A stretch of 40,208 bases of DNA, taken from positions 1 through 40,208 of the forward strand of contig JAJTHM010000033.1 in assembly GCA_021297855.1 (NCBI GenBank). Direction: 5' to 3'. The translations under genes and the position numbers were made by a program. How positions within the stretch are numbered: position 1 is the first letter of the stretch; each line of letters opens with the position of its first letter. The notes beneath the pieces are model-generated. The model was not told the DNA's origin, made no database searches, and saw only the letters and a list, made by a program, of their open reading frames with translations. Shown here one piece after another: positions 3,705 to 31,670 of the stretch. This stretch comes from Sphingobacteriales bacterium. Lineage in GTDB: Bacteria; Bacteroidota; Bacteroidia; Chitinophagales; JADJOU01.

Positions 3705-4754
3705 TTATTTTAGTTCTACTTTTTTGACAACTATCTCATTGTTTATCTTAAGTTTAACTAAATAAATGCCATTTGAAAGATGCGATAAATCAATAGAAGT
3801 GTTATGGTTTAAGGGATTATAAAATGCCAACTTGCCTTGAATGGAATAGATAGAAAGTTCTATTTTTTCTTTCACTTCATTGAAATACAATACCTTATTG
3901 AATATATAAATGTTTGGAAAGTTTGGATTAGTCTCCGTTTTTACATGAGAGGTAGGATTTGTTTTCACCACTACTATAGGCTTAGAAATAGCCGGATTGG
4001 GTAAAGCTCCAAATTGGCTTGAATACATCCAACATGTCACCGTATCGCCACCCCTTATGGTCGAACTAGTATACGTATCCTCTGAAGTTTTAGTCCCAAT
4101 ATTTTTTCCATTTACTTTCCATTGGTATTCTGGCGTAGGTCCTCCATTAGTGGGAAAGGCTTTAAAGATAATAACAGAATTGGGATTCTTTGGATCATAG
4201 GTGTTTGTTATTCTGACTTCTACACTTGCTGAATCTGAAGCAGTCAGTTCATCAAATGAATAGCTAAATTTACTACTTGGTTTGTCTCCGGTGGCATCAT
4301 TGCTATTATCCACTGCGTTGAGGTATGCCTCTAAAGTGACGCTTCCAGTGCCTTTTGCGGGCGAATTCCATCTGGCAGAAACCTGAAATTTACTTGAGGT
4401 CCCGGTTATTTTTTGTTTATGTTCCCAAATATTTCCCGATACCTGACAGTCGGCAGAAGGGTTGGTAAAGCTGCCCTTTCCACCATGCGTCATTTGAAAT
4501 CCAAATCGATTCAAAGCCCCCGAATTTGATCCGTAGATGGTGATAATATAAGGCTTAGCAGGACTGTATTTGATCATTTTATCGAGTGTGGTTACATCTC
4601 GAAGAATGATACTATCTATTTTGGTCGTTGTGCTAGAGCCATTATGGCAGTTGTTGCAATTGAAATTGGCACTACCAGCTCCTGTAGAATTGCTATTGTA
4701 AAGAGTCCAGAGAAGAATAGATAGGCAAAGGGCGTATAGGTATTTAAACTTCAT
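3705..4754 (-). CDS. T9SS-exported protein with N-terminal CxxCH domain, 349 aa
   Basis: A signal peptide covers roughly residues 1-25. The mature start carries CNNCH (C33, C36, H37), a c-type-haem-like motif also usual in the bacterial domain annotated as choice-of-anchor V or Reeler-like, which appears to run to about residue 165. A PKD/Ig-like segment follows (about 175-265, EYQWKVNGKNIG). The C-terminus (about 275-349; IELSIYSIQGK, then SNGIYLVKL) is a type A T9SS sorting domain, so export across the outer membrane with cleavage or anchoring is predicted. The start codon is one base after the stop of the small membrane protein, so the two are probably co-translated. The N-terminal domain resembles that of the 1518-aa protein at 27-31.7 kb. 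The molecular role is unknown. Confidence 0.8.
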   Translation of the reverse strand: MKFKYLYALCLSILLWTLYNSNSTGAGSANFNCNNCHNGSSTTTKIDSIILRDVTTLDKMIKYSPAKPYIITIYGSNSGALNRFGFQMTHGGKGSFTNPSADCQVSGNIWEHKQKITGTSSKFQVSARWNSPAKGTGSVTLEAYLNAVDNSNDATGDKPSSKFSYSFDELTASDSASVEVRITNTYDPKNPNSVIIFKAFPTNGGPTPEYQWKVNGKNIGTKTSEDTYTSSTIRGGDTVTCWMYSSQFGALPNPAISKPIVVVKTNPTSHVKTETNPNFPNIYIFNKVLYFNEVKEKIELSIYSIQGKLAFYNPLNHNTSIDLSHLSNGIYLVKLKINNEIVVKKVELK

Positions 4755-19369: not shown

Positions 19370-20233
19370 ATGCTAAGCGTAGAAAAGAAAAATGAATTAG
19401 ATAAAGTCGCACTGAACGTCAGAGAGCATATCGTGAATATGAGCACCAATGGGGGCTGCTTCACAGGAGCTTCACTTTCATGTGCGGATATTTTAGTTTA
19501 TCTTTATCATGATTATCTCAATATTGGCCCACATAATTTTAAAGATGAGAATCGAGATTATTTGTTTTTGTCTAAGGGCCATGATGTTCCAGCGCTTTAT
19601 GGTATGTTTGTAGAGAAAGGTTGGATGACCAGGGATAGATTAATTAATAATCACCTCAAATCAAATGATGATATTTACTGGCATCCAAATAGAAAAATAG
19701 ATGGAATAGAGTTTCATTCTGGGTCATTAGGGCATCTACCTTCTGTAGCTTTAGGTGTAGCCTATGATTGTAAAATGAAAAAGCAATCGAATAAAATTAT
19801 CTGTATCGTAGGCGACGGCGAATGTGATGAAGGTTCCGTGTGGGAAGCTATGCTAGTAGCGAGTGCTAAGAAAATGAACAATCTCACCATAGTCGTAGAT
19901 CGAAATCACTTTCAGGCAAATGTAGCTACGGAAGATTTGATTCCTCTCGAGCCTTTTGCAGATAAATTTATCGCTTTCGGCGCTGAGGTAAGACGAATTG
20001 ATGGACATGATTTTGATGCACTGCATGAAACTTTCAGCCAACTCCCTTTTCATAGTGAAAAACCAAGCGTTATCATCTGCGATACTGTTAGAGGTAAAGG
20101 ACTTCCCTCCATCGAAGCCAGAGCAGACCGCTGGTTCTGCAATTTCAATTCAGACGAAGTAGAATCTTTATTGAAAGAACTTCATGGAGATGCTACGACA
20201 GAATTAGTATCGGAGACATTGGTGGTGAGGTAA
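19370..20233 (+). CDS. Transketolase, N-terminal (thiamine-diphosphate) subunit
   Basis: The half of a split transketolase that binds the ThDP pyrophosphate; it transfers two-carbon units between sugar phosphates. Sites: SKGHDVPALYG (S68-H71), GSLGHLPSVALG (118-129), the Mg/ThDP motif GDGECDEG starting at G148 with the downstream N179 in VVDRNHFQ, and EDLIPLEPFADKF. The 287 aa are normal for the N-terminal subunit. The C-terminal subunit (pyrimidine-binding domain), which usually follows, is absent; instead the exosortase gene runs in from the other strand and overlaps the 3' end by 52 nt. Either the partner is elsewhere or this paralogue serves a dedicated sugar pathway. Confidence 0.9.
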   Translation: MLSVEKKNELDKVALNVREHIVNMSTNGGCFTGASLSCADILVYLYHDYLNIGPHNFKDENRDYLFLSKGHDVPALYGMFVEKGWMTRDRLINNHLKSNDDIYWHPNRKIDGIEFHSGSLGHLPSVALGVAYDCKMKKQSNKIICIVGDGECDEGSVWEAMLVASAKKMNNLTIVVDRNHFQANVATEDLIPLEPFADKFIAFGAEVRRIDGHDFDALHETFSQLPFHSEKPSVIICDTVRGKGLPSIEARADRWFCNFNSDEVESLLKELHGDATTELVSETLVVR

Positions 20234-21504
20234 TTTTCATTAATTAATCTGCTCTTACCTCCATACAAAATTTGTTGTAAGTTCATTTTCCATGTAGAAG
20301 TAAACACCACATCTCTGTGCTCAAACCAATAGTATGCGGCGATGGTATCCTTTTTATTAGTTATTAAAGCGAGATTAACTTTTTCCATTTTACCTCGTAC
20401 GATTTTTTCTGTAATTTTTTTATCAAGTATGGCAAAACCGTCCCCTGTCCAACAAATTAGAGGGTTGTGATATTTGGCTTTAATATAAATAAGTTTGTTA
20501 TCTGTAAATATTTTATAAACATCGGGTTCGACCCATTTTCCATTTGCAATTGGGTATCTCTTTTCTAAACCATTTAAAACATATTCAGTTTTGTTCTGAT
20601 TTCGTTTAACTGAATATCCAATACAAACTAAGAATATGCTCACAGCAGCAATAATGATTATAGAAGATGGAGATATATCGTCGGACTTTATAGATTTGAC
20701 ATCCAGAATTACTGGCTTGCAATACCTCACAAGAAAATATAAGGGAAGTATCTGATATAATAAAAAACAAACTATGCCTATCAAATAATGAATAGTTCCA
20801 GCCTGTGTGTTTTTTAGAAGAATGAGTAAAATTATTCTAAAGTAATTGGAAAATATATTGAGAAAAAAACAGACAACAATTAATAGAAAGTAGAACCAAT
20901 ATTTGTAGAACAGGTTTTCGATTTTTTCCTTAAGGGTAATTAGAATTAGTAAAACAAGAAATCCTGTTTTAAACATATGGAGTCCCATGCAACTACTGTC
21001 AATTGTTATCCATTGAGAACCTTGTTTGAAATGTACTCCAGATATATCCGATAAGTTCAAAAGGTCTTTAAGCGTCCAATAAGAAAGCTGAGTTAAATAC
21101 TGTTTAATATTAGGAGTATAAACCGACATTATTTTGTCGAATATGGGGGAGTAAAAAATCAAAATGAATAGTACTAACCAATTTAGTTTACGGTACAGAA
21201 AATATTGAAAATAGATAATGAATAATACAAGGGAAGTTAAAAACAAAGATTTTGCATCAAGTCTTACTGAGAGAAAAGAAAAAATAAGGATAAGTCCTAA
21301 CAGTAAACTATGTGGAATCTTAGAGTGGTAACTACGCCCATGTATAAAGCTGATTAATATGCAGATACTTAAACCGAAAAAATTATCATTCATAGAAACC
21401 AGGACTATTTCAAAATGAAGTAGAAATGGAAAAAGTATAAGAAGAGAGGCAATAAATTCCAATCTGCTCAATGGTCTAATTGCTGGTGTGCTGAAAAAAC
21501 TCAA
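20182..21504 (-). CDS. xrtN: Exosortase, XrtN type, with C-terminal periplasmic extension
   Basis: A membrane-embedded transpeptidase-like enzyme that recognises PEP-CTERM-type tails. It has about eight helices; the predicted catalytic residues are C172 in DSSCMGLHM, R223 in SNYFRIILL and H239 in GTIHYLIG. After the last helix (about residue 300) a soluble region of about 140 aa contains YHNPLICWTGDGFAI, which recalls the EpsI-type domain fused to or near some exosortases. I place the start at TTG 21504, two bases past the VIT-gene stop; an upstream TTG at 21552 would overlap that gene by 47 nt and no ATG lies early in frame. The adjacent VIT protein carries the expected tail. The 3' end overlaps the convergent transketolase by 52 nt. 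Confidence 0.85.
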   Translation of the reverse strand: MSFFSTPAIRPLSRLEFIASLLILFPFLLHFEIVLVSMNDNFFGLSICILISFIHGRSYHSKIPHSLLLGLILIFSFLSVRLDAKSLFLTSLVLFIIYFQYFLYRKLNWLVLFILIFYSPIFDKIMSVYTPNIKQYLTQLSYWTLKDLLNLSDISGVHFKQGSQWITIDSSCMGLHMFKTGFLVLLILITLKEKIENLFYKYWFYFLLIVVCFFLNIFSNYFRIILLILLKNTQAGTIHYLIGIVCFLLYQILPLYFLVRYCKPVILDVKSIKSDDISPSSIIIIAAVSIFLVCIGYSVKRNQNKTEYVLNGLEKRYPIANGKWVEPDVYKIFTDNKLIYIKAKYHNPLICWTGDGFAILDKKITEKIVRGKMEKVNLALITNKKDTIAAYYWFEHRDVVFTSTWKMNLQQILYGGKSRLINENYLTTNVSDTNSVVASP

Positions 21505-21505
21505 T

Positions 21506-23971
21506 TTATTTAGTAAGTAATCTTCGTTTATAAATGTAAAATGTGCATACAATTCCTAGCAATAATAATGCCCATTCATGCGGTTCAGGAACAGCACCTG
21601 CATTTTTCATAGAGGCATTGCCTAAGGTATTTTCATTTTTTTGGATACCATGCTTTTTGTAATCTTCATCCGTTTCTAATACTACTAAGGAGCTTATAGG
21701 AGTCACAATATTGGCGTCTTCAGCTAGCTGAAGACTGGCATAGTTTTCGGCGTTAGTGTCAGCCGCATTGCCTACGAAATCATTGAGAACTTGTCTGTAA
21801 GCAAACATTCTATAAATATGGTCTGAGCCATTTGATTTGGTATTATTATTTAGCACAGATTCCTTTCTTATACCTACTTTCGATGTCTCTATATAAGATA
21901 AATTAGCATCTTCTATGACTAGTGGATAACGCTGATGCAGAATAATATGGATTGCTTTATCCATATCCGTTTGATGATATTTCACATATTTTTGTTCGCT
22001 CAAAGTCTGCCAATAAGGTGTGATCTCGCTACCAATGTTTAATGCATATAGTGTGTGCTTTTGTTTGTACTTTGTCAAACTATCATAAAACGGACTTTCT
22101 TTCAATTCCTCAAAATTGGCAGAATTATTCCCCATTTTAGTTAGAATAAAACCTTCTTTTGATATTTTGTGTAAAGGAATCAGACTATAATTGTATTTTA
22201 TATTTTCTTTAATTATATTCTTGAGATTTGATTTTTCGATTCGGACTTGCTCTCCATTTATAAAAGTATAGCAAGAAAATTTAGGGTCTAACTGTCCAAG
22301 AATTTTTTTAATTTCAGTCTCTTCCCAGTTCGAGTTTAGATCGAAATAAACCTCACTCAAGTCAGTTTGTGCAGTATCGTATATTGGATTGATTACAGTG
22401 TAGTTAAACCCTTTCCATTGAAAGTGAATAGGAGTAAGAGTAGCCCGTGGTAGAGATGCATTCCATTTAGTATATCCTTGGGAAGAACGTATTAATTGAT
22501 TCGCTTCAGTATCAAATTTTGATGAAGTGGAAACTTTCTCAAGACTTTTGGAACGCACACGAGAGATTATCTTAGCTTCAGCCATAGACGGACCCTTTAT
22601 AGAGATGTTATCATATTTCATCTGATTATTCTCCATAGAAAAAGGAGAAGTGATTCCTAACTTAAATTGTCTTGGCATTTCTTTCGTTACAGGGAATATT
22701 CTACAAACAATTCTATTTCCTTCGCGCCATTGAAGCAGAGATGGATCTCTGGCTTCCACACCTACTATTTGATCATACGCTTTTTTAGCTTTCGATTTTG
22801 AAGTCAATACACCTTTTCTTTCTACACCATTCACCCACAGAGAGAGGGAGGTAGCTACGGCTCCTTCAGGCAGTTGAAAAGAGTAAATGGCTTCGCCTTG
22901 ACCCCATTTTGAATTATTGGCTATATCCATAGTTAATTCTGTGTACGCTAGCCTCTCTTTTTCAAAAAGATATACATCTTCTTTAATTGCTTTAGTTTCT
23001 AAGTTATCACCACTCCACAATTGATGTTCTGTTTGACTTCTATTGTCAAAATTGGCCTCTAAAATTTTAATTCTATCATCTTTTGATATGCTGGGGTCTT
23101 TGGTCAAACTGAAACAGGTGAGAATAAATGGGTCGTGTATTTTTCTCTCGTTGTATTGTTTAGAACTACCAAAATCAAATCTGGACATAGTCCAAAATTC
23201 GTCAATGCTATTATAAACGAGTCCTTTCTTTAAAAGAATCTCATTGATGAAATTAGGTTTGACCCTTTGAGATATTTGAACCCAGTCAAGTAATTCTTCA
23301 TTGGATTCAAATTGAAAAATAGTTTTAGAATTAACTAGTTTAGTACTCTCCATATTCAATAAAATAGTAAATACACCTATGAGTAGAAGCACAGATCCAA
23401 TGCCAGAAAAGAAGTAATACCAATTTATCTTTTCAGTATTTAACTTGGATATTAATGTACTTATATGTAATATGCTTATCAATAAAGGAGCGAATCCGTG
23501 TAGCCCTAATCCTAAAAGAATTATAACAAGAGCTGAGATGGGGATTAAAGGGATTAAGTAAACTGTAAAGTAAATTACTAAAAGAAAGGAAACGCCATTG
23601 AGGTAAAATGCCAATTTTTGGTGTTTTTCTTTTTGATGATATATCCAGTAACTACTTATAAAAAATATTGCTAATAAAATATAAACCCAATATGTTGTAT
23701 TTTCGAATACATCAAAAAGTAGGTTGAGACTAAAACAACTGATCGTCCATAAACTATATAGTAAAGGAAGTCCTAAGCTATCAATTTTTTTATGTCGAAA
23801 TAAGTTTGCTAGACATGTAATACTATATACTGTACATAGAATTACATTGATAAAAACGATACTTAAGGCATCATCCGATATCCATTCCATTTGATGACCA
23901 GTGAGTAAGACGAAAAATGTAATACCAGCAATTAGATTGGCAATTACCCCAAATTTTCTAGTAAAGTTCAT
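21506..23971 (-). CDS. XrtN-system VIT-domain protein with PEP-CTERM-type C-terminus
   Basis: An 821-aa envelope protein. Residues 1-207 contain about seven to eight TM helices. A long extracytoplasmic part follows, with a VIT domain at about 335-445 (AIYSFQLPEGAV, then KAKKAYDQIV, RDPSLLQW, RIFPV). A region resembling a vWA fold starts near 540 (VYFDLNSNWEE), but its metal site is DLNSN instead of DxSxS, so it is probably degenerate. The C-terminus is VPEPHEW (794-800), a hydrophobic helix and KRRLLTK: the PEP-CTERM plan recognised by exosortases. The gene is immediately upstream of the exosortase and presumably encodes its substrate. The molecular role is not known. Confidence 0.88.
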   Translation of the reverse strand: MNFTRKFGVIANLIAGITFFVLLTGHQMEWISDDALSIVFINVILCTVYSITCLANLFRHKKIDSLGLPLLYSLWTISCFSLNLLFDVFENTTYWVYILLAIFFISSYWIYHQKEKHQKLAFYLNGVSFLLVIYFTVYLIPLIPISALVIILLGLGLHGFAPLLISILHISTLISKLNTEKINWYYFFSGIGSVLLLIGVFTILLNMESTKLVNSKTIFQFESNEELLDWVQISQRVKPNFINEILLKKGLVYNSIDEFWTMSRFDFGSSKQYNERKIHDPFILTCFSLTKDPSISKDDRIKILEANFDNRSQTEHQLWSGDNLETKAIKEDVYLFEKERLAYTELTMDIANNSKWGQGEAIYSFQLPEGAVATSLSLWVNGVERKGVLTSKSKAKKAYDQIVGVEARDPSLLQWREGNRIVCRIFPVTKEMPRQFKLGITSPFSMENNQMKYDNISIKGPSMAEAKIISRVRSKSLEKVSTSSKFDTEANQLIRSSQGYTKWNASLPRATLTPIHFQWKGFNYTVINPIYDTAQTDLSEVYFDLNSNWEETEIKKILGQLDPKFSCYTFINGEQVRIEKSNLKNIIKENIKYNYSLIPLHKISKEGFILTKMGNNSANFEELKESPFYDSLTKYKQKHTLYALNIGSEITPYWQTLSEQKYVKYHQTDMDKAIHIILHQRYPLVIEDANLSYIETSKVGIRKESVLNNNTKSNGSDHIYRMFAYRQVLNDFVGNAADTNAENYASLQLAEDANIVTPISSLVVLETDEDYKKHGIQKNENTLGNASMKNAGAVPEPHEWALLLLGIVCTFYIYKRRLLTK

Positions 23972-24014
23972 AAGAAAGCAAGATTAGTAGCTAAAGTATA
24001 ATGTTTTAATAAGA

Positions 24015-24022
24015 CAAATATA
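24015..24022 (-). promoter_or_regulatory. -7 element of the VIT/xrtN unit
   Basis: TATATTTG on the minus strand, 43 nt upstream of the VIT-gene ATG, matches TAnnTTTG. No good -33 TTG is seen. Confidence 0.4.
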
Positions 24023-24103
24023 ACTCTCATGCGCAGTAGTTTAGTATTTTTAATTTTGTTAAAGACTATTAGAATAATGGTCTCACTTTAAATTAACCTT
24101 TAG

Positions 24104-24111
24104 TATTTTTG
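24104..24111 (+). promoter_or_regulatory. -7 element of the toxin-antitoxin operon
   Basis: TATTTTTG lies 45 nt upstream of the antitoxin ATG and matches TAnnTTTG. The -33 region is unconvincing. Confidence 0.35.
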
Positions 24112-24156
24112 TAAAAAAGAAATATTTACACAAGAATTGATTAATAGTATTCGCTT

Positions 24157-24366
24157 ATGAAAGTTCTTATTGAGATACCAGAAAATGAAATAATTTCTCT
24201 TATGGAGTGGTCACAAGAGCATGATTCTGAGGTATTGATGAAATCATCAGAGGAATTGTCCAGTGAATATTTAAGTGAATTGCTAGAAAGAACAAAAACT
24301 CCTTTAGACCAGTGCAGAAACGCGCATGAGCGTTTAGCGGAGATAGAAAAGGACTATGGAGTTTGA
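24157..24366 (+). CDS. Antitoxin of a type II toxin-antitoxin pair, 69 aa
   Basis: A short acidic protein (MKVLIEIPENE, then helices rich in Glu/Ser and a tail AHERLAEIEKDYGV). It has the size, charge and position of antitoxins paired with RelE/ParE toxins: it lies directly upstream and its stop overlaps the toxin start by 11 nt. A DNA-binding motif is not evident; the first strand (KVLIEIPENE) could be a short beta strand as in ribbon-helix-helix types. Its specific antitoxin family is not recognised. Confidence 0.75.
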   Translation: MKVLIEIPENEIISLMEWSQEHDSEVLMKSSEELSSEYLSELLERTKTPLDQCRNAHERLAEIEKDYGV

Positions 24367-24652
24367 AATCAAGATTGAAGATAGGGCAGATAGAGAAATG
24401 TTAGAAGCTATTAATTATTATGCTTCTTTAAATGTATCTGGTTTGGTTGAGAGGTTTTTAAGAGACTATAGAAGAACTCTAAATCAATTACAAACTAGCC
24501 CATATTTCCCTGTAAAGATAGATACTATTAGGGTTATTCCTTTTAAGGTTTTTCCCTATGTTTTATTTTTTAAAATATTTGAATCAAAAGGAATAATACT
24601 AATTGTTTCTGTGTTCAATACCTTTCAAGACCCGACAAAGTATCCTGCCTGA
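24356..24652 (+). CDS. RelE/ParE-superfamily toxin, 98 aa
   Basis: A small basic-to-neutral protein with the ParE/RelE layout: an N-terminal strand (FEIKIEDRADREM), two helices (LEAINYYASLN, VERFLRDYRRTLNQLQ) and a C-terminal sheet (IRVIPFKVFPYVLFFKIF, IILIVSVFNTFQDPTKYP). The F-P-Y-V-L-F-F strand and the final DPxxYP-like tail are common in this family. The target (ribosome-bound mRNA or gyrase) cannot be told from sequence. gyrB lies 7 kb away, which is probably coincidence. It may be a chromosomal, degenerating or domesticated pair, but both frames are intact. Confidence 0.85.
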   Translation: MEFEIKIEDRADREMLEAINYYASLNVSGLVERFLRDYRRTLNQLQTSPYFPVKIDTIRVIPFKVFPYVLFFKIFESKGIILIVSVFNTFQDPTKYPA

Positions 24653-24708
24653 TATAATTTAGGTAGAGGTAGTCAAAAATTATATCAAATTCTATATTAA
24701 CACTTAAA

Positions 24709-27113: not shown

Positions 27114-30100
27114 TTATTCCATGATAAACTTCAAACTAGTGGAAGTTTTTTCACCCTGAAGAAGAATGAAATACGTTCCAGATGTCAACCCTAGTGGGAC
27201 TAAATCGATAGCGTTTTCAGTCTTTTTAATCACAGATTCGAATCTATTCTTACCTGTCATATCATAAATGAAATAATTCATGTTTTCTTTATGGTTATTC
27301 ACTTGAATTTTATTAGCATATTTAAAGACCTCAAACTTATCTGAACTAGATACAATCGAAGAAGAACCCGGATATACCTGCACTGCATAAATACAATTTT
27401 GATTGCCAATCTGAATGTTAAAGTTTGCCCATCCATTTGATGTTGTTGTGCCGCTTAAGTTGTATCTCAAAACGCCATCACCAAAGTTTAATACCCCACT
27501 GGCAGACTGGGCAGCAAGACCAGTAATACCAGCAGATTGAATAGCTTGAGCGCTAACTGGACCACCATTTCCACCTTGATAAGGTATAGTAAAGAATACA
27601 CCAGGATTTAATGTGCCAACTAAAACGGAGGTACTTAATTGTCCTTTGTCACAGCTTATATTCATAACTTGCCCTGTTGAAGATCTTACTGGAATCGAGA
27701 ATGAACACATCTTGCCGCCTATATTTAGCGCAAAGCTAGCAGTACCCTCGGCAGAAGGAGTGCCTGTTATCGAGTAGGATACTAGACCAAATCCAAGTGC
27801 GAATTGACCAGAATTCAAGGTGGCAGTCAAACCTGTAACACCTGTTGAAGGAGTTGTTTGGCCAAAATGATAGCCTCTATTTCCTCCATCGTATGGTATC
27901 GTAAAAGATGTGCCATTGCTTGCAGTTCCTTGGATTAAAAAGCCAGAGATTTTCCCATCTGTACAGCTCAAAGAATTTATTGTACCAACTAATAGTGGTT
28001 TCACAGGAATAACATAGTTACATATTTTGCCAGCAATATTAATTGCAAACTCTGCATTGCCTGAATTAGTTGGGGTACCAGTGATGGTTAGTATGATATT
28101 CCCATTACCAGTGGCTAAAACGCCGGCATTAGCGGCGGCAGTGAGTCCAGTGACACCTGTGGAAGCAATATTAATAGCATTGTATGATCCTCCATTAGCA
28201 CCTAAGTAAGGAACCTTTAACGAAACTCCCGCTAGAGGAATTTGAGCCATTATATCCTCGGTCTTGCTTAGCTTCAAGCTATCACATTGCAGGGTGGCTA
28301 TTGTTCCAACTGGTTGTATTACATTATAAGAGAAATCACAGGATTTACCTCCGATTAAAACATTAAATAGAGCAGTGCCTGCAGTGGTGGGTGTACCAGA
28401 AACATTAAATAATAAATTGCCATTCCCATCTTTCAAGGTATCTGCAGTAATACTTGCGGTAAGTCCTGCGACTCCTGTTGAATTTATCGATTGAGCAGAG
28501 AATAATCCCCTATTGCCTTGAGTATAAGGAATGGTGAAAGAAATACCAGTCGCAACTTCTCCTCTCACTAAAGTTCCTGTTCTCACGCCATTTCCACAAT
28601 CGAGTTGACCGCCAATTCTAGCATTAGGCAAACCGACCTGAATAGTGTGAATACATGTTTTACCATCTATAGTGAATGAGAAACTAGCTACACCTCCTTT
28701 GTCTGGAGTACCAGTTACTGTAAACATAACACTATCTGAACCTACAACAAAGGTATCAGCAGGTGTTTGGGCTGTGAGGCCTAGCACTCCCGTGGAGTTT
28801 ATATTACTAATAGCAGAATACAGCCCTCCATTTCCTCCTGTATAGGGTACTTTGAAAGATACACCGCTTGCTGCCTGCTCACCTTTTAAGGTTCCACTTG
28901 TCATTATTTGACCACATACCAATGCAGAAATAGTTCCTTGTTGCAATCTAACAGGGATAGAATAACTACACGATTTACCACCGAGATTCAAAGCAAAGCT
29001 TGCACTTCCTGCGCCTGTTGGTATGCCAGTAACGGTATACGTGAGATTACCATTTCCTGTAGCGAACAAAGCTGAAGGTGTATTAGCCGATAAACCTAAG
29101 GCTCCAGTTGAACTTACAGTTTGACCTGCGTGGGAACCATTATTTCCGCCAGTATATGGAATAGAGAAGGAAACCCCATTGGCTGCTACTGTCGCAGTTA
29201 AAGTGCCAATGGTAGTGCCATTTGGACAATTTAAGGCTGAAATAACACCAATAGCAGGAGATACAGTGATCGAATATAAACAAGATTTACCTCCTATATT
29301 GAGGAAGAAGTCCGCTGTTCCAAAAGTTGATGGTGTTCCTGTTACGAAATAAGTTAAATTTCCGCTACCTGTTGCAAAATTCCCTGAGGATAGAGTAGCA
29401 GTTAGACCTGTGACACCTGTAGAATTAATAGTTTGACCACTATGTGTGCCCCCATTGCCTCCAGTATATGGAACATCAAATGAGACGCCGCTGGCTAGGT
29501 TAGCAGCTGTTAAAGTACCTGTAGTGGCAGCAGACCCACAATTAATAGAACCAATGGCTCCTGGCCCAACATTAATAGTATATGTACAGTTTTTTCCTCC
29601 TATGTTGACCGCAAAATTTGCATTACCAACTGCGCTCGGAGTTCCTGTCACATTATAGGTCACATCACCACTGCCATTGGCAAAGCTATTAGAAGATAAA
29701 ACTGCTGTAAGTCCTGTGATATTGGTTGAATTAATCGTTTGTCCGGTATGAAATCCACCGTTTCCTCCAGAATAAGGAACTTTAAAGGACAATCCACTGG
29801 CAGCAGCTCCTGCAGCAGCAGTACCTGTGGTCGTTCCTGACGCACAGTCAATAGCACCAATCAAACCTGAATTTACTGTAATTGAAAACGCACATGTCTG
29901 CCCACCTCTTGAAACTGAAAAGTCTGCTGAACCAGCTGCCGCAGGTGTCCCAGTCACTGTGTAGGTGATTGTCCCAGCCCCAGAAGCAAATAATCCTGCT
30001 TGAATAATCGCCTTCAAACCAGTCACTGTAGTCGAAAATATAGTGTCTGCATTATATGTTCCAGCATTCCCTCCAGTATATGGTATAGTAAATGAAACCC

Positions 30101-31670
30101 CGTTAGCAGCTACGCCATTGGATAAAGTACCACTGACACTGCCACCTGCACAGTTAAGAACAGTGACTACGCCAACTGGTGGAAGGACATTTGCTACATA
30201 GTTGCAATTGCGTCCGCCAATATTAAGAGCAAAGGTTGCATTCCCTGTACCTGAAGGTGTTCCAGAAATAGAATAGGTTACGCTATCGTTTCCTGTTTTG
30301 AAACTACCAGCGTTAAGAGTAGCAGTCAAGCCAGTTACTCCTGTTGAGCTAACTATTTGACCACTATGTGCTCCACCATTACCACCAGTATATGGTATTT
30401 TGAAAGAATCAGTGACTTGAGTAGCTGAACCATTCATCAGTATGCCTAATAATTTACCATTTGCACAATTTAAGGCAGTAATTGTTCCAACCACGGCGTT
30501 GACCGTAGCAGGGTATAAACAGTTTCTGCCACCTATATTTAAAGCAAAATTTGCAGCACCAACCCCAACTGGAGTTCCGCTTACAGTATAAGTCACGCTA
30601 TCAGATCCATTCGCAAAATTCCCTGCAGCCAAGGTAGCTGTGAGACCAGTGACCCCCGTGGATGTGACGGATTGCCCAGTATGTGTACCAGTATTTCCTC
30701 CTGTGTAGGGCACTTTAAATGAAACTCCACTGGCAGCTTGACCGTTTGTTAAGCTGCCTATAGTTCTGCCATTGTTGCAATCTAAAGAGGTGATTGAACC
30801 CGCTGGCGCAGTCACTGCGACGCTAACTGTACAGTTCTTTAGACCTATATTTAAGGCAAAGTTAGCAGTACCAGGACCAGAAGCCGTCCCAGTTATTGTA
30901 TAGGTCAATGAATCATTGCCATTTATAAAATTCCCCGCAGTGAGAGTAGCGGTCAATCCAGTAACTCCAGTAGATGTGACTACCTGTCCGAAATGTGCAC
31001 CACCATTTCCACCAGTGTACGGCACTCTGATTGAAACACCAGAGGCAGGTGTCCCAGAAGTTAAATTACCTACCAATCTTCTGTTTGCGCAAACTAAAGT
31101 GGTAACTATTCCTAAAACATTAAAACTCTCTGATCTAGGAGATGAAGAAAAGGCATCGCCAGCATTTGAACCAGTTCCATTTACAGCATTGACGACAGAT
31201 TGCAGTGTTATCGAATTTTGTCCTGTTGGGGCTTTCCATGTAGCTTCTACGATGTATTTACCTGAGGCAGGACTTACCATCGCACTGTTCGTCAGCATTT
31301 GTGCACCTGAACTGAGGCCTGTGCTTGTTGGAAAAGGAGTTTGAAATGAACCTACTACAGCACTTGAGGTATTGATGCCTCTTAGTTGAAATCCAAAGTT
31401 AGGATATGTCCCAGTACCAGAAGTATTGGAAGCTACCATACGTATTTTATAATTAGAATCTGGATAGAAACCAGTCATCACTGCCCCTGTAGTTGGGTGC
31501 ATTAATATTATGGAATCTACAGTGGTACTGGATGACGATGTATGACAACCGGCATTGGCACATGTATTCCAGCCTTTTACATTAGCTACTGCTACATTGT
31601 CAGAGTTATTGGTGAAAGTATAGAATATTACTATGGATAATAATAGACCAAAGGCAAACTTTTTTCTCAT
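27114..31670 (-). CDS. Giant T9SS-exported repeat protein with CX4CH N-terminal domain, 1518 aa
   Basis: A signal peptide covers about residues 1-29. The first domain (about 30-190) has TCANAGCH (C37, C42, H43), then FGFQLRG and SITLQSVVNAVN, matching the CxxCH-bearing choice-of-anchor V/Reeler-like domain also found at 3.7-4.8 kb. Residues 194 to about 1435 form 12 tandem units of about 103 aa, each with two cysteines and the pattern GVSFxVPYTGGNGG, STGVTGLTA, GTPxxxGxAxF, GGKxC. The C-terminus (about 1437-1518; NYFIYDMTGKN, LTSGTYFILL) is a T9SS type A sorting domain. It is probably a surface adhesin or secreted fibre-like protein; ligand unknown. A consensus promoter lies 31 nt upstream. 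Confidence 0.88.
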   Translation of the reverse strand: MRKKFAFGLLLSIVIFYTFTNNSDNVAVANVKGWNTCANAGCHTSSSSTTVDSIILMHPTTGAVMTGFYPDSNYKIRMVASNTSGTGTYPNFGFQLRGINTSSAVVGSFQTPFPTSTGLSSGAQMLTNSAMVSPASGKYIVEATWKAPTGQNSITLQSVVNAVNGTGSNAGDAFSSSPRSESFNVLGIVTTLVCANRRLVGNLTSGTPASGVSIRVPYTGGNGGAHFGQVVTSTGVTGLTATLTAGNFINGNDSLTYTITGTASGPGTANFALNIGLKNCTVSVAVTAPAGSITSLDCNNGRTIGSLTNGQAASGVSFKVPYTGGNTGTHTGQSVTSTGVTGLTATLAAGNFANGSDSVTYTVSGTPVGVGAANFALNIGGRNCLYPATVNAVVGTITALNCANGKLLGILMNGSATQVTDSFKIPYTGGNGGAHSGQIVSSTGVTGLTATLNAGSFKTGNDSVTYSISGTPSGTGNATFALNIGGRNCNYVANVLPPVGVVTVLNCAGGSVSGTLSNGVAANGVSFTIPYTGGNAGTYNADTIFSTTVTGLKAIIQAGLFASGAGTITYTVTGTPAAAGSADFSVSRGGQTCAFSITVNSGLIGAIDCASGTTTGTAAAGAAASGLSFKVPYSGGNGGFHTGQTINSTNITGLTAVLSSNSFANGSGDVTYNVTGTPSAVGNANFAVNIGGKNCTYTINVGPGAIGSINCGSAATTGTLTAANLASGVSFDVPYTGGNGGTHSGQTINSTGVTGLTATLSSGNFATGSGNLTYFVTGTPSTFGTADFFLNIGGKSCLYSITVSPAIGVISALNCPNGTTIGTLTATVAANGVSFSIPYTGGNNGSHAGQTVSSTGALGLSANTPSALFATGNGNLTYTVTGIPTGAGSASFALNLGGKSCSYSIPVRLQQGTISALVCGQIMTSGTLKGEQAASGVSFKVPYTGGNGGLYSAISNINSTGVLGLTAQTPADTFVVGSDSVMFTVTGTPDKGGVASFSFTIDGKTCIHTIQVGLPNARIGGQLDCGNGVRTGTLVRGEVATGISFTIPYTQGNRGLFSAQSINSTGVAGLTASITADTLKDGNGNLLFNVSGTPTTAGTALFNVLIGGKSCDFSYNVIQPVGTIATLQCDSLKLSKTEDIMAQIPLAGVSLKVPYLGANGGSYNAINIASTGVTGLTAAANAGVLATGNGNIILTITGTPTNSGNAEFAINIAGKICNYVIPVKPLLVGTINSLSCTDGKISGFLIQGTASNGTSFTIPYDGGNRGYHFGQTTPSTGVTGLTATLNSGQFALGFGLVSYSITGTPSAEGTASFALNIGGKMCSFSIPVRSSTGQVMNISCDKGQLSTSVLVGTLNPGVFFTIPYQGGNGGPVSAQAIQSAGITGLAAQSASGVLNFGDGVLRYNLSGTTTSNGWANFNIQIGNQNCIYAVQVYPGSSSIVSSSDKFEVFKYANKIQVNNHKENMNYFIYDMTGKNRFESVIKKTENAIDLVPLGLTSGTYFILLQGEKTSTSLKFIME
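27366..31091 (-). repeat. Coding tandem array: 12 units of about 310 bp
   Basis: Each unit starts with a Cys codon (first at residue 194) and ends before the next. Unit-to-unit protein identity is moderate and the DNA has diverged, so this is old duplication and not a recently slipped array. Confidence 0.85.

What the first reader, a model, noticed from the sequence alone, without database searches (positions are those of the whole stretch)
20182..23971. Self-contained exosortase-substrate pair (XrtN plus VIT/PEP-CTERM protein)
Seen: an exosortase with all three active-site residues directly downstream of a large VIT protein ending in PEP, a TM helix and KRR; the exosortase start lies two bases past the VIT stop. 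Known: most exosortases process many PEP-CTERM proteins, while the XrtN type in Bacteroidota is tied to a VIT partner. Inferred: a one-enzyme, one-substrate envelope system whose purpose is undescribed, in a cell that also has T9SS for bulk surface sorting.
Basis: partly seen in the sequence, partly recalled or inferred. Interest (0 to 1): 0.62.

Follow-up and report, generated by a model that had tools for sequence, protein, structure and literature searches.

The report
Exosortase with one dedicated VIT substrate
A membrane enzyme (XrtN) and the single large membrane protein it very probably trims at the C-terminus sit side by side and appear to travel through Bacteroidota genomes as a two-gene unit; the pair is already named in protein-family databases, but I found no report of an experimental test of it.

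Summary
Window 20182-21504 (minus) is exosortase XrtN (TIGR04476, 240.7 bits). One base upstream lies the VIT protein at 21506-23971 (TIGR04477 'sorted_by_XrtN', 770.8 bits). The pair is therefore already curated. The one-enzyme/one-substrate reading holds. In 14 genomes, including this one, a profile of the tail finds exactly one strong match each. In 80 of 80 named relatives xrtN is the next gene downstream. In a 396-genome phylum sample the two families occur in the same 5 genomes. The catalytic Cys/Arg/His are intact in 85 of 85 XrtN.

Three corrections or additions. (1) The substrate is not an ordinary secreted PEP-CTERM protein: it has a predicted bundle of 7-8 N-terminal TM helices that would stay in the inner membrane after cleavage. 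Its ectodomain folds like human inter-alpha-inhibitor heavy chain 1, with a degenerate metal site. (2) Here the pair sits, with a ParE-type toxin and an upstream partner ORF, in a ~4.5 kb insert between tkt and tgt. Four congeners have the empty site, and xrtN's last 16 codons read antisense into tkt. (3) Trees place it with Flavobacterium-type pairs, not with a same-order pair. Biological function remains untested.

The parts
20182..21504 (-). xrtN, exosortase N, 440 aa from TTG. Membrane exosortase core with C172/R223/H239, then a C-terminal EpsI/DUF3485-like domain with invariant H346-x-P-x-x-C351-W-x-G-x-G
   Evidence: TIGR04476 240.7 bits, EpsI TIGR02914 22.2 bits (below its cut-off); start codon; invariance 85/85; model pLDDT 79
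21506..23971 (-). VIT protein, the proposed sole XrtN substrate, 821 aa: 7-8 N-terminal TM helices (residues 7-221), VIT/vWA-like ectodomain (222-795), C-terminal sorting tail
   Evidence: TIGR04477 770.8 bits; Pfam VIT; model pLDDT 83.6; PDB best match 6fpy E 1.9e-14
21509..21598 (-). C-terminal sorting tail of the VIT protein, residues 792-821: GAVPEPHEW, TM helix 797-820, basic end KRRLLTK
   Evidence: GAVPEPHEW nearly invariant in 85; profile hit E 1.4e-15, the only strong one in the genome
23972..24156 (-). Divergent intergenic region upstream of the VIT gene with a Bacteroidota -7-like TATATTTG at -51
   Evidence: pattern scan; consensus match only
24157..24366 (+). 69 aa ORF overlapping the toxin gene, antitoxin-like by position only; part of the insert
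   Evidence: no Pfam match
24356..24652 (+). ParE-type toxin, 98 aa; part of the insert, not of the exosortase system proper
   Evidence: PF05016 27.1 bits against cut-off 23
20234..24708 (.). About 4.5 kb insert between tkt-N and tgt carrying the pair and the toxin gene; 7-11 nt separate tkt and tgt in three congeners, about two dozen in a fourth
20182..20233 (-). 3' end of xrtN (codons 425-440 plus stop) read antisense from the end of tkt; the native stop appears to be lost at the junction
   Evidence: codon map

Best explanation
XrtN and the VIT protein are a dedicated enzyme-substrate pair in the inner membrane. The VIT protein is inserted through its N-terminal helix bundle, its VIT/vWA-like ectodomain sits in the periplasm, and its C-terminal helix carries GAVPEPHEW at the periplasmic face. 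XrtN, translated directly after it, recognises that motif. Cys172, helped by Arg223 and His239, attacks near the PEP, the C-terminal helix is cut off, and the new C-terminus is either freed or passed to an unidentified envelope acceptor (lipid or glycan). The ectodomain stays tied to the inner membrane through its N-terminal bundle. In this genome the pair was acquired as one cassette with a ParE-type toxin gene. Shown: pairing, single tail per genome, catalytic residues, predicted architecture, empty sites in congeners. Inferred: cleavage, transfer, periplasmic topology, acceptor, direction of gain versus loss, cell-level role.
For: Curated family matches. 80/80 adjacency on the same strand. 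Same 5 of 396 genomes. Only strong tail per genome in 14 genomes. Triad 85/85. VIT and XrtN trees mirror each other, r = 0.954 against a permutation maximum of 0.47. Net charge of at least +2 after the helix in 83 of 84 tails. Ectodomain fold like inter-alpha-inhibitor heavy chain 1. Insert and empty sites. Phylogenetic placement with Flavobacterium-type pairs.
Against: No experiment on XrtN was found in the paper library. PF07589 scores this tail below its cut-off, so it is not a textbook PEP-CTERM. A profile of XrtN tails cannot exclude a second substrate with a very different tail. Mirror trees partly reflect shared ancestry.
Confidence: 0.8

Rival explanations
1. XrtN has further substrates whose tails differ too much from GAVPEPHEW to be seen, so the system is one-to-many.
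For: [quoted passage not shown] PF07589 missed even the known tail in the genome scan.
Against: No second match with the Gly-Val-Pro-Glu-Pro region plus helix in any of 14 genomes. The motif is nearly frozen across 85 partners, consistent with a single cognate site.
Confidence: 0.1
2. XrtN simply hydrolyses the tail as a maturation or activation switch, with no acceptor attached.
For: The substrate is already anchored by its N-terminal helices, so no new anchor is needed. There is no recognisable exopolysaccharide cluster around the pair in this window, only two scattered glycosyltransferases.
Against: Related enzymes are thought to act as transpeptidases that leave a new C-terminal moiety (statement in PMC11980579). 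The nearest solved fold, inter-alpha-inhibitor heavy chain, is esterified through its new C-terminus to a glycan (PMC7170535).
Confidence: 0.4
3. The pair was ancestral in the genus and lost precisely by the four congeners, rather than gained in this lineage.
For: Patchy presence among relatives: 3 of 61 including this genome.
Against: tkt and tgt form a tight 7-11 nt junction in G405, G406 and G407. xrtN's last 16 codons read into tkt antisense. The pair groups with Flavobacterium-type pairs and the AU test rejects grouping it with the same-order G417 pair and L116.
Confidence: 0.15

Closest known systems
XrtN / XrtN-system VIT protein (NCBIfam TIGR04476 / TIGR04477)
   Same: Both proteins exceed the curated cut-offs and are adjacent.
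   Different: Placed in an insert with a ParE-type toxin; XrtN C-terminus extended by antisense tkt; the HTH_34 and ~220 aa partner genes seen in 9 of 25 non-Flavobacterium loci are absent.
XrtK / MSEP-CTERM (TIGR04287 / TIGR04286)
   Same: Dedicated exosortase next to a large VIT protein with an N-terminal multi-TM region; the substrates are homologous (97.8 bits over residues 94-485; MSEP proteins hit TIGR04477). Single loci of both systems carry CreD and DUF1361.
   Different: XrtK is a minimal 166-179 aa enzyme; motif MSEP instead of PEPHEW; enzyme gene lies upstream. Present in 4 of 396 genomes, none with XrtN.
Canonical XrtA / PEP-CTERM
   Same: Cys/Arg/His membrane enzyme; tripartite PEP-TM-basic tail.
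   Different: One substrate instead of many; polytopic substrate instead of a signal-peptide secreted one; no exopolysaccharide cluster here.
Inter-alpha-inhibitor heavy chain 1 (human)
   Same: Ectodomain fold, Foldseek E 1.9e-14 over about 590 columns. In the human protein a C-terminal pro-domain is removed as the C-terminus is esterified to a glycan (PMC7170535).
   Different: MIDAS is degenerate here (D-x-N-x-S/N); N-terminal TM bundle; any modification unknown.
TIGR02921 PEP_integral
   Same: Named as a PEP-CTERM protein; a weak sub-cut-off match of one XrtN-VIT homologue (28.5 bits against 200).
   Different: Far below cut-off, so not a member.

Membership tests
Exosortase N (TIGR04476) | Score above curated cut-off | tested here: met
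   240.7 bits against 200
Exosortase N (TIGR04476) | Catalytic Cys, Arg, His | tested here: met
   C172, R223, H239; 85/85
Exosortase N (TIGR04476) | Proteolytic or transpeptidase activity | not testable with these tools
   needs experiment
XrtN system VIT protein (TIGR04477) | Score above cut-off and VIT domain | tested here: met
   770.8 bits against 250; PF08487 51.3 bits
XrtN system VIT protein (TIGR04477) | Adjacent to xrtN | tested here: met
   1 nt gap; 80/80 relatives
Canonical PEP-CTERM protein | PEP, TM helix, basic end at the C-terminus | tested here: met
   GAVPEPHEW, helix 797-820, KRRLLTK
Canonical PEP-CTERM protein | Pfam PF07589 above cut-off | tested here: not met
   11.1 bits against 20.7
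Canonical PEP-CTERM protein | Secreted by a cleavable signal peptide, no other TM helix | tested here: not met
   7-8 predicted N-terminal helices
Canonical PEP-CTERM system | Many substrates per genome | tested here: not met
   one strong tail per genome in 14 genomes
MSEP-CTERM (TIGR04286) | Score above cut-off | tested here: not met
   97.8 bits against 150
Inter-alpha-inhibitor heavy chain-like | VIT plus vWA hybrid fold | tested here: met
   6fpy E 1.9e-14, probability 1.00; whole-chain TM-score only 0.31-0.40
Inter-alpha-inhibitor heavy chain-like | Intact MIDAS DxSxS | tested here: not met
   D544-L-N546-S-N548 in the window; N at 546 in 76 of 85

The most novel reading that the evidence does not exclude
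VIT/vWA-fold proteins may be a general class whose new C-terminus is covalently joined to an envelope or matrix glycan or lipid by a dedicated enzyme. XrtN/VIT, XrtK/MSEP and possibly the marine proteobacterial sortase target TIGR03788 would be bacterial versions of what inter-alpha-inhibitor heavy chains do in animals. XrtN would then make a protein tether between the inner membrane (N-terminal bundle) and an envelope polymer (C-terminus), in a cassette that moves between Bacteroidota lineages as a unit.
Probability: 0.2. Interest if true: 0.75.

Novelty: new member of a known kind. Interest (0 to 1): 0.45.

Why it matters
Exosortase chemistry (what, if anything, replaces the removed tail) is unsettled and most systems have many substrates. 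A two-gene, one-substrate system that is compact and portable, with a substrate that cannot leave the inner membrane because of its N-terminal bundle, is a clean place to measure cleavage and identify an acceptor. The fold link to inter-alpha-inhibitor heavy chains gives a concrete hypothesis to test.

Tried and rejected
PF07589 scan of the own genome: its two weak hits lie in Lgt-like and NuoK-like frames (my reading), and it missed the window's own tail, so it was replaced by a profile of XrtN tails with a working positive control. The two next-best tail hits in the own genome (C128) are the C-terminus of IlvE and a duplicate scrap, GAIPDPHNWVMVVE (the name IlvE is my reading of the sequence). 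Foldseek of XrtN gave nothing significant; the EpsI-like domain weakly resembles DcrB/SciW/PsbP (E 0.23), recorded only as a lead. No plasmid in the collection carries the VIT protein. No match to PADLOC defence models. No clear target-site duplication is visible at the insert edges by eye, and the direct repeats found are short and unconvincing. GC content (0.31-0.33 against 0.39-0.40 for tkt/tgt) agrees with an insert but other window genes are as low, so it is weak evidence. The library has no paper naming XrtN in this sense or MSEP-CTERM, and Haft 2012 is not held.

Full report
WHAT IS THERE. Two genes on the minus strand: a VIT protein (23971-21506, 821 aa) and, one base after its stop, an exosortase (TTG 21504 to 20182, 440 aa). 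NCBIfam names them XrtN (TIGR04476, 240.7 bits) and 'XrtN system VIT domain-containing protein' (TIGR04477, 770.8 bits). The pairing itself is therefore known to database curators. The held library gave no paper on this XrtN.

ONE ENZYME, ONE SUBSTRATE. A profile of 24 XrtN-VIT tails (A3) was run on this genome and 13 others. Each has exactly one strong match (E 1e-14 to 1e-19), all in frames of VIT-protein size (832-870 aa, 825 in the window). For the window and the four G-handle genomes these are the positions found with TIGR04477. Everything else is at E 0.03 or worse. The two next-best in this genome are the end of IlvE, a soluble enzyme, and a nearby duplicate scrap. The earlier PF07589 scan is uninformative because it missed the known tail. 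TIGR04178 finds only this exosortase above cut-off. In a 396-genome sample of the phylum, both families exceed their cut-offs in the same five genomes, side by side. In 80 named loci from genome contigs, xrtN follows the VIT gene on the same strand every time, usually within a few bases or overlapping (L124 has a broken VIT frame). C172, R223 and H239 are invariant in 85 of 85, and so is the EpsI-domain motif H-x-P-x-x-C-W-x-G-x-G. Trees of the two proteins mirror each other, r = 0.954, permutation maximum 0.47, though shared ancestry contributes.

THE SUBSTRATE IS UNUSUAL. The predicted structure (pLDDT 83.6) has 7-8 N-terminal TM helices (residues 7-221), a large ectodomain and a single C-terminal helix at 797-820. 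Cutting at the PEP therefore cannot free the protein from the membrane as it would a signal-peptide PEP-CTERM protein. The best solved match is human inter-alpha-inhibitor heavy chain 1, E 1.9e-14 over about 590 columns; TM-scores of 0.31-0.40 over whole chains mean that domains match better than the overall arrangement. The metal site is degenerate: D544 is kept in 84 of 85, but the serine at +2 is Asn in 76 of 85. In the human protein a C-terminal pro-domain is removed as the C-terminus is esterified to a glycan (PMC7170535). That parallel is suggestive only.

A SISTER SYSTEM. MSEP-CTERM proteins, paired with XrtK, are homologous to the XrtN substrate, while XrtK is a much shorter enzyme encoded upstream. 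MSEP-CTERM occurs in 4 of the 396 genomes, none of them with XrtN; with counts this small, that does not show exclusion. One XrtK locus carries CreD and DUF1361, which also occur in a few XrtN loci. Nine of 25 non-Flavobacterium XrtN loci, and G417, also have an HTH_34 regulator and a ~220 aa protein upstream. The window's locus has neither.

THE PAIR IS AN INSERT HERE. In congeners G405, G406 and G407, tkt-N (93% identical) and tgt (85-90%) are directly adjacent, 7-11 nt apart. They are also adjacent, about two dozen nt apart, in G408, which is 62% complete. Neither family exceeds its cut-off in any of the four. In the window 4475 nt lie between tkt and tgt, holding the pair and a ParE-type toxin with an upstream partner ORF. 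The junction falls two residues after XrtN's last invariant residue, N422, and the last 16 codons read antisense into tkt, as expected if the native stop was lost on insertion. The pair groups with L080 and Flavobacterium pairs at 100/100, and the AU test rejects grouping it with the same-order G417 pair and L116, p 2e-53 and 2.5e-5; the XrtN branch is long. Gain is favoured over loss but not proven.

MECHANISM. Most likely XrtN cuts the tail near the PEP by a Cys/Arg/His mechanism, as proposed for exosortases (PMC1569441). Whether an acceptor is attached is open. The F. johnsoniae XrtF work (PMC10936215) shows that a related exosortase of the phylum affects surface colonisation and biofilm; it says nothing direct about XrtN.

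VERDICT. A genuine, well-supported member of a known two-gene system, with three additions: single-tail evidence across genomes, a membrane-anchored substrate with a heavy-chain-like fold, and an empty-site case for movement as a unit.

Noticed in passing
window 24157-24652: 69 aa ORF plus ParE-type toxin on the plus strand, inside the same insert as the exosortase pair; no relative found by tblastn (E <= 1e-3) in the 80 other XrtN loci or the congener stretches.
   Followed up: partly
L147 5470-7269 (G000 contig C128): A scrap repeating the last ~23 residues of IlvE lies about 700 bases downstream of the intact ilvE.
   Followed up: partly
window 20182-20233: Convergent xrtN and tkt overlap by 52 bases; the XrtN C-terminus is read antisense from tkt.
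   Followed up: yes
L166-L168, L173: Empty tkt-tgt sites in four congeners, giving a clean comparison for the insert.
   Followed up: yes
L080, L109, L114-L117, L120, L122, L123, L170: Recurrent upstream genes: ~220 aa protein and HTH_34 regulator, sometimes followed by CreD or DUF4153, with DUF1361 downstream of xrtN in three loci.
   Followed up: partly
window 20182-21504, residues 340-430 of XrtN: The EpsI-like domain has an invariant second Cys (C351) and His (H346) and a weak structural resemblance to DcrB/SciW/PsbP (E 0.23); possible second functional site.
   Followed up: no
window 27114-31670 and 3705-4754: Two T9SS cargo-type proteins with C-terminal sorting domains; the first is a 1518 aa repeat protein without a Pfam match.
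   Followed up: no
L122: A MAG labelled Williamsia (Actinomycetota) carries a Chitinophagaceae-like XrtN locus, probably a binning or labelling error.
   Followed up: no
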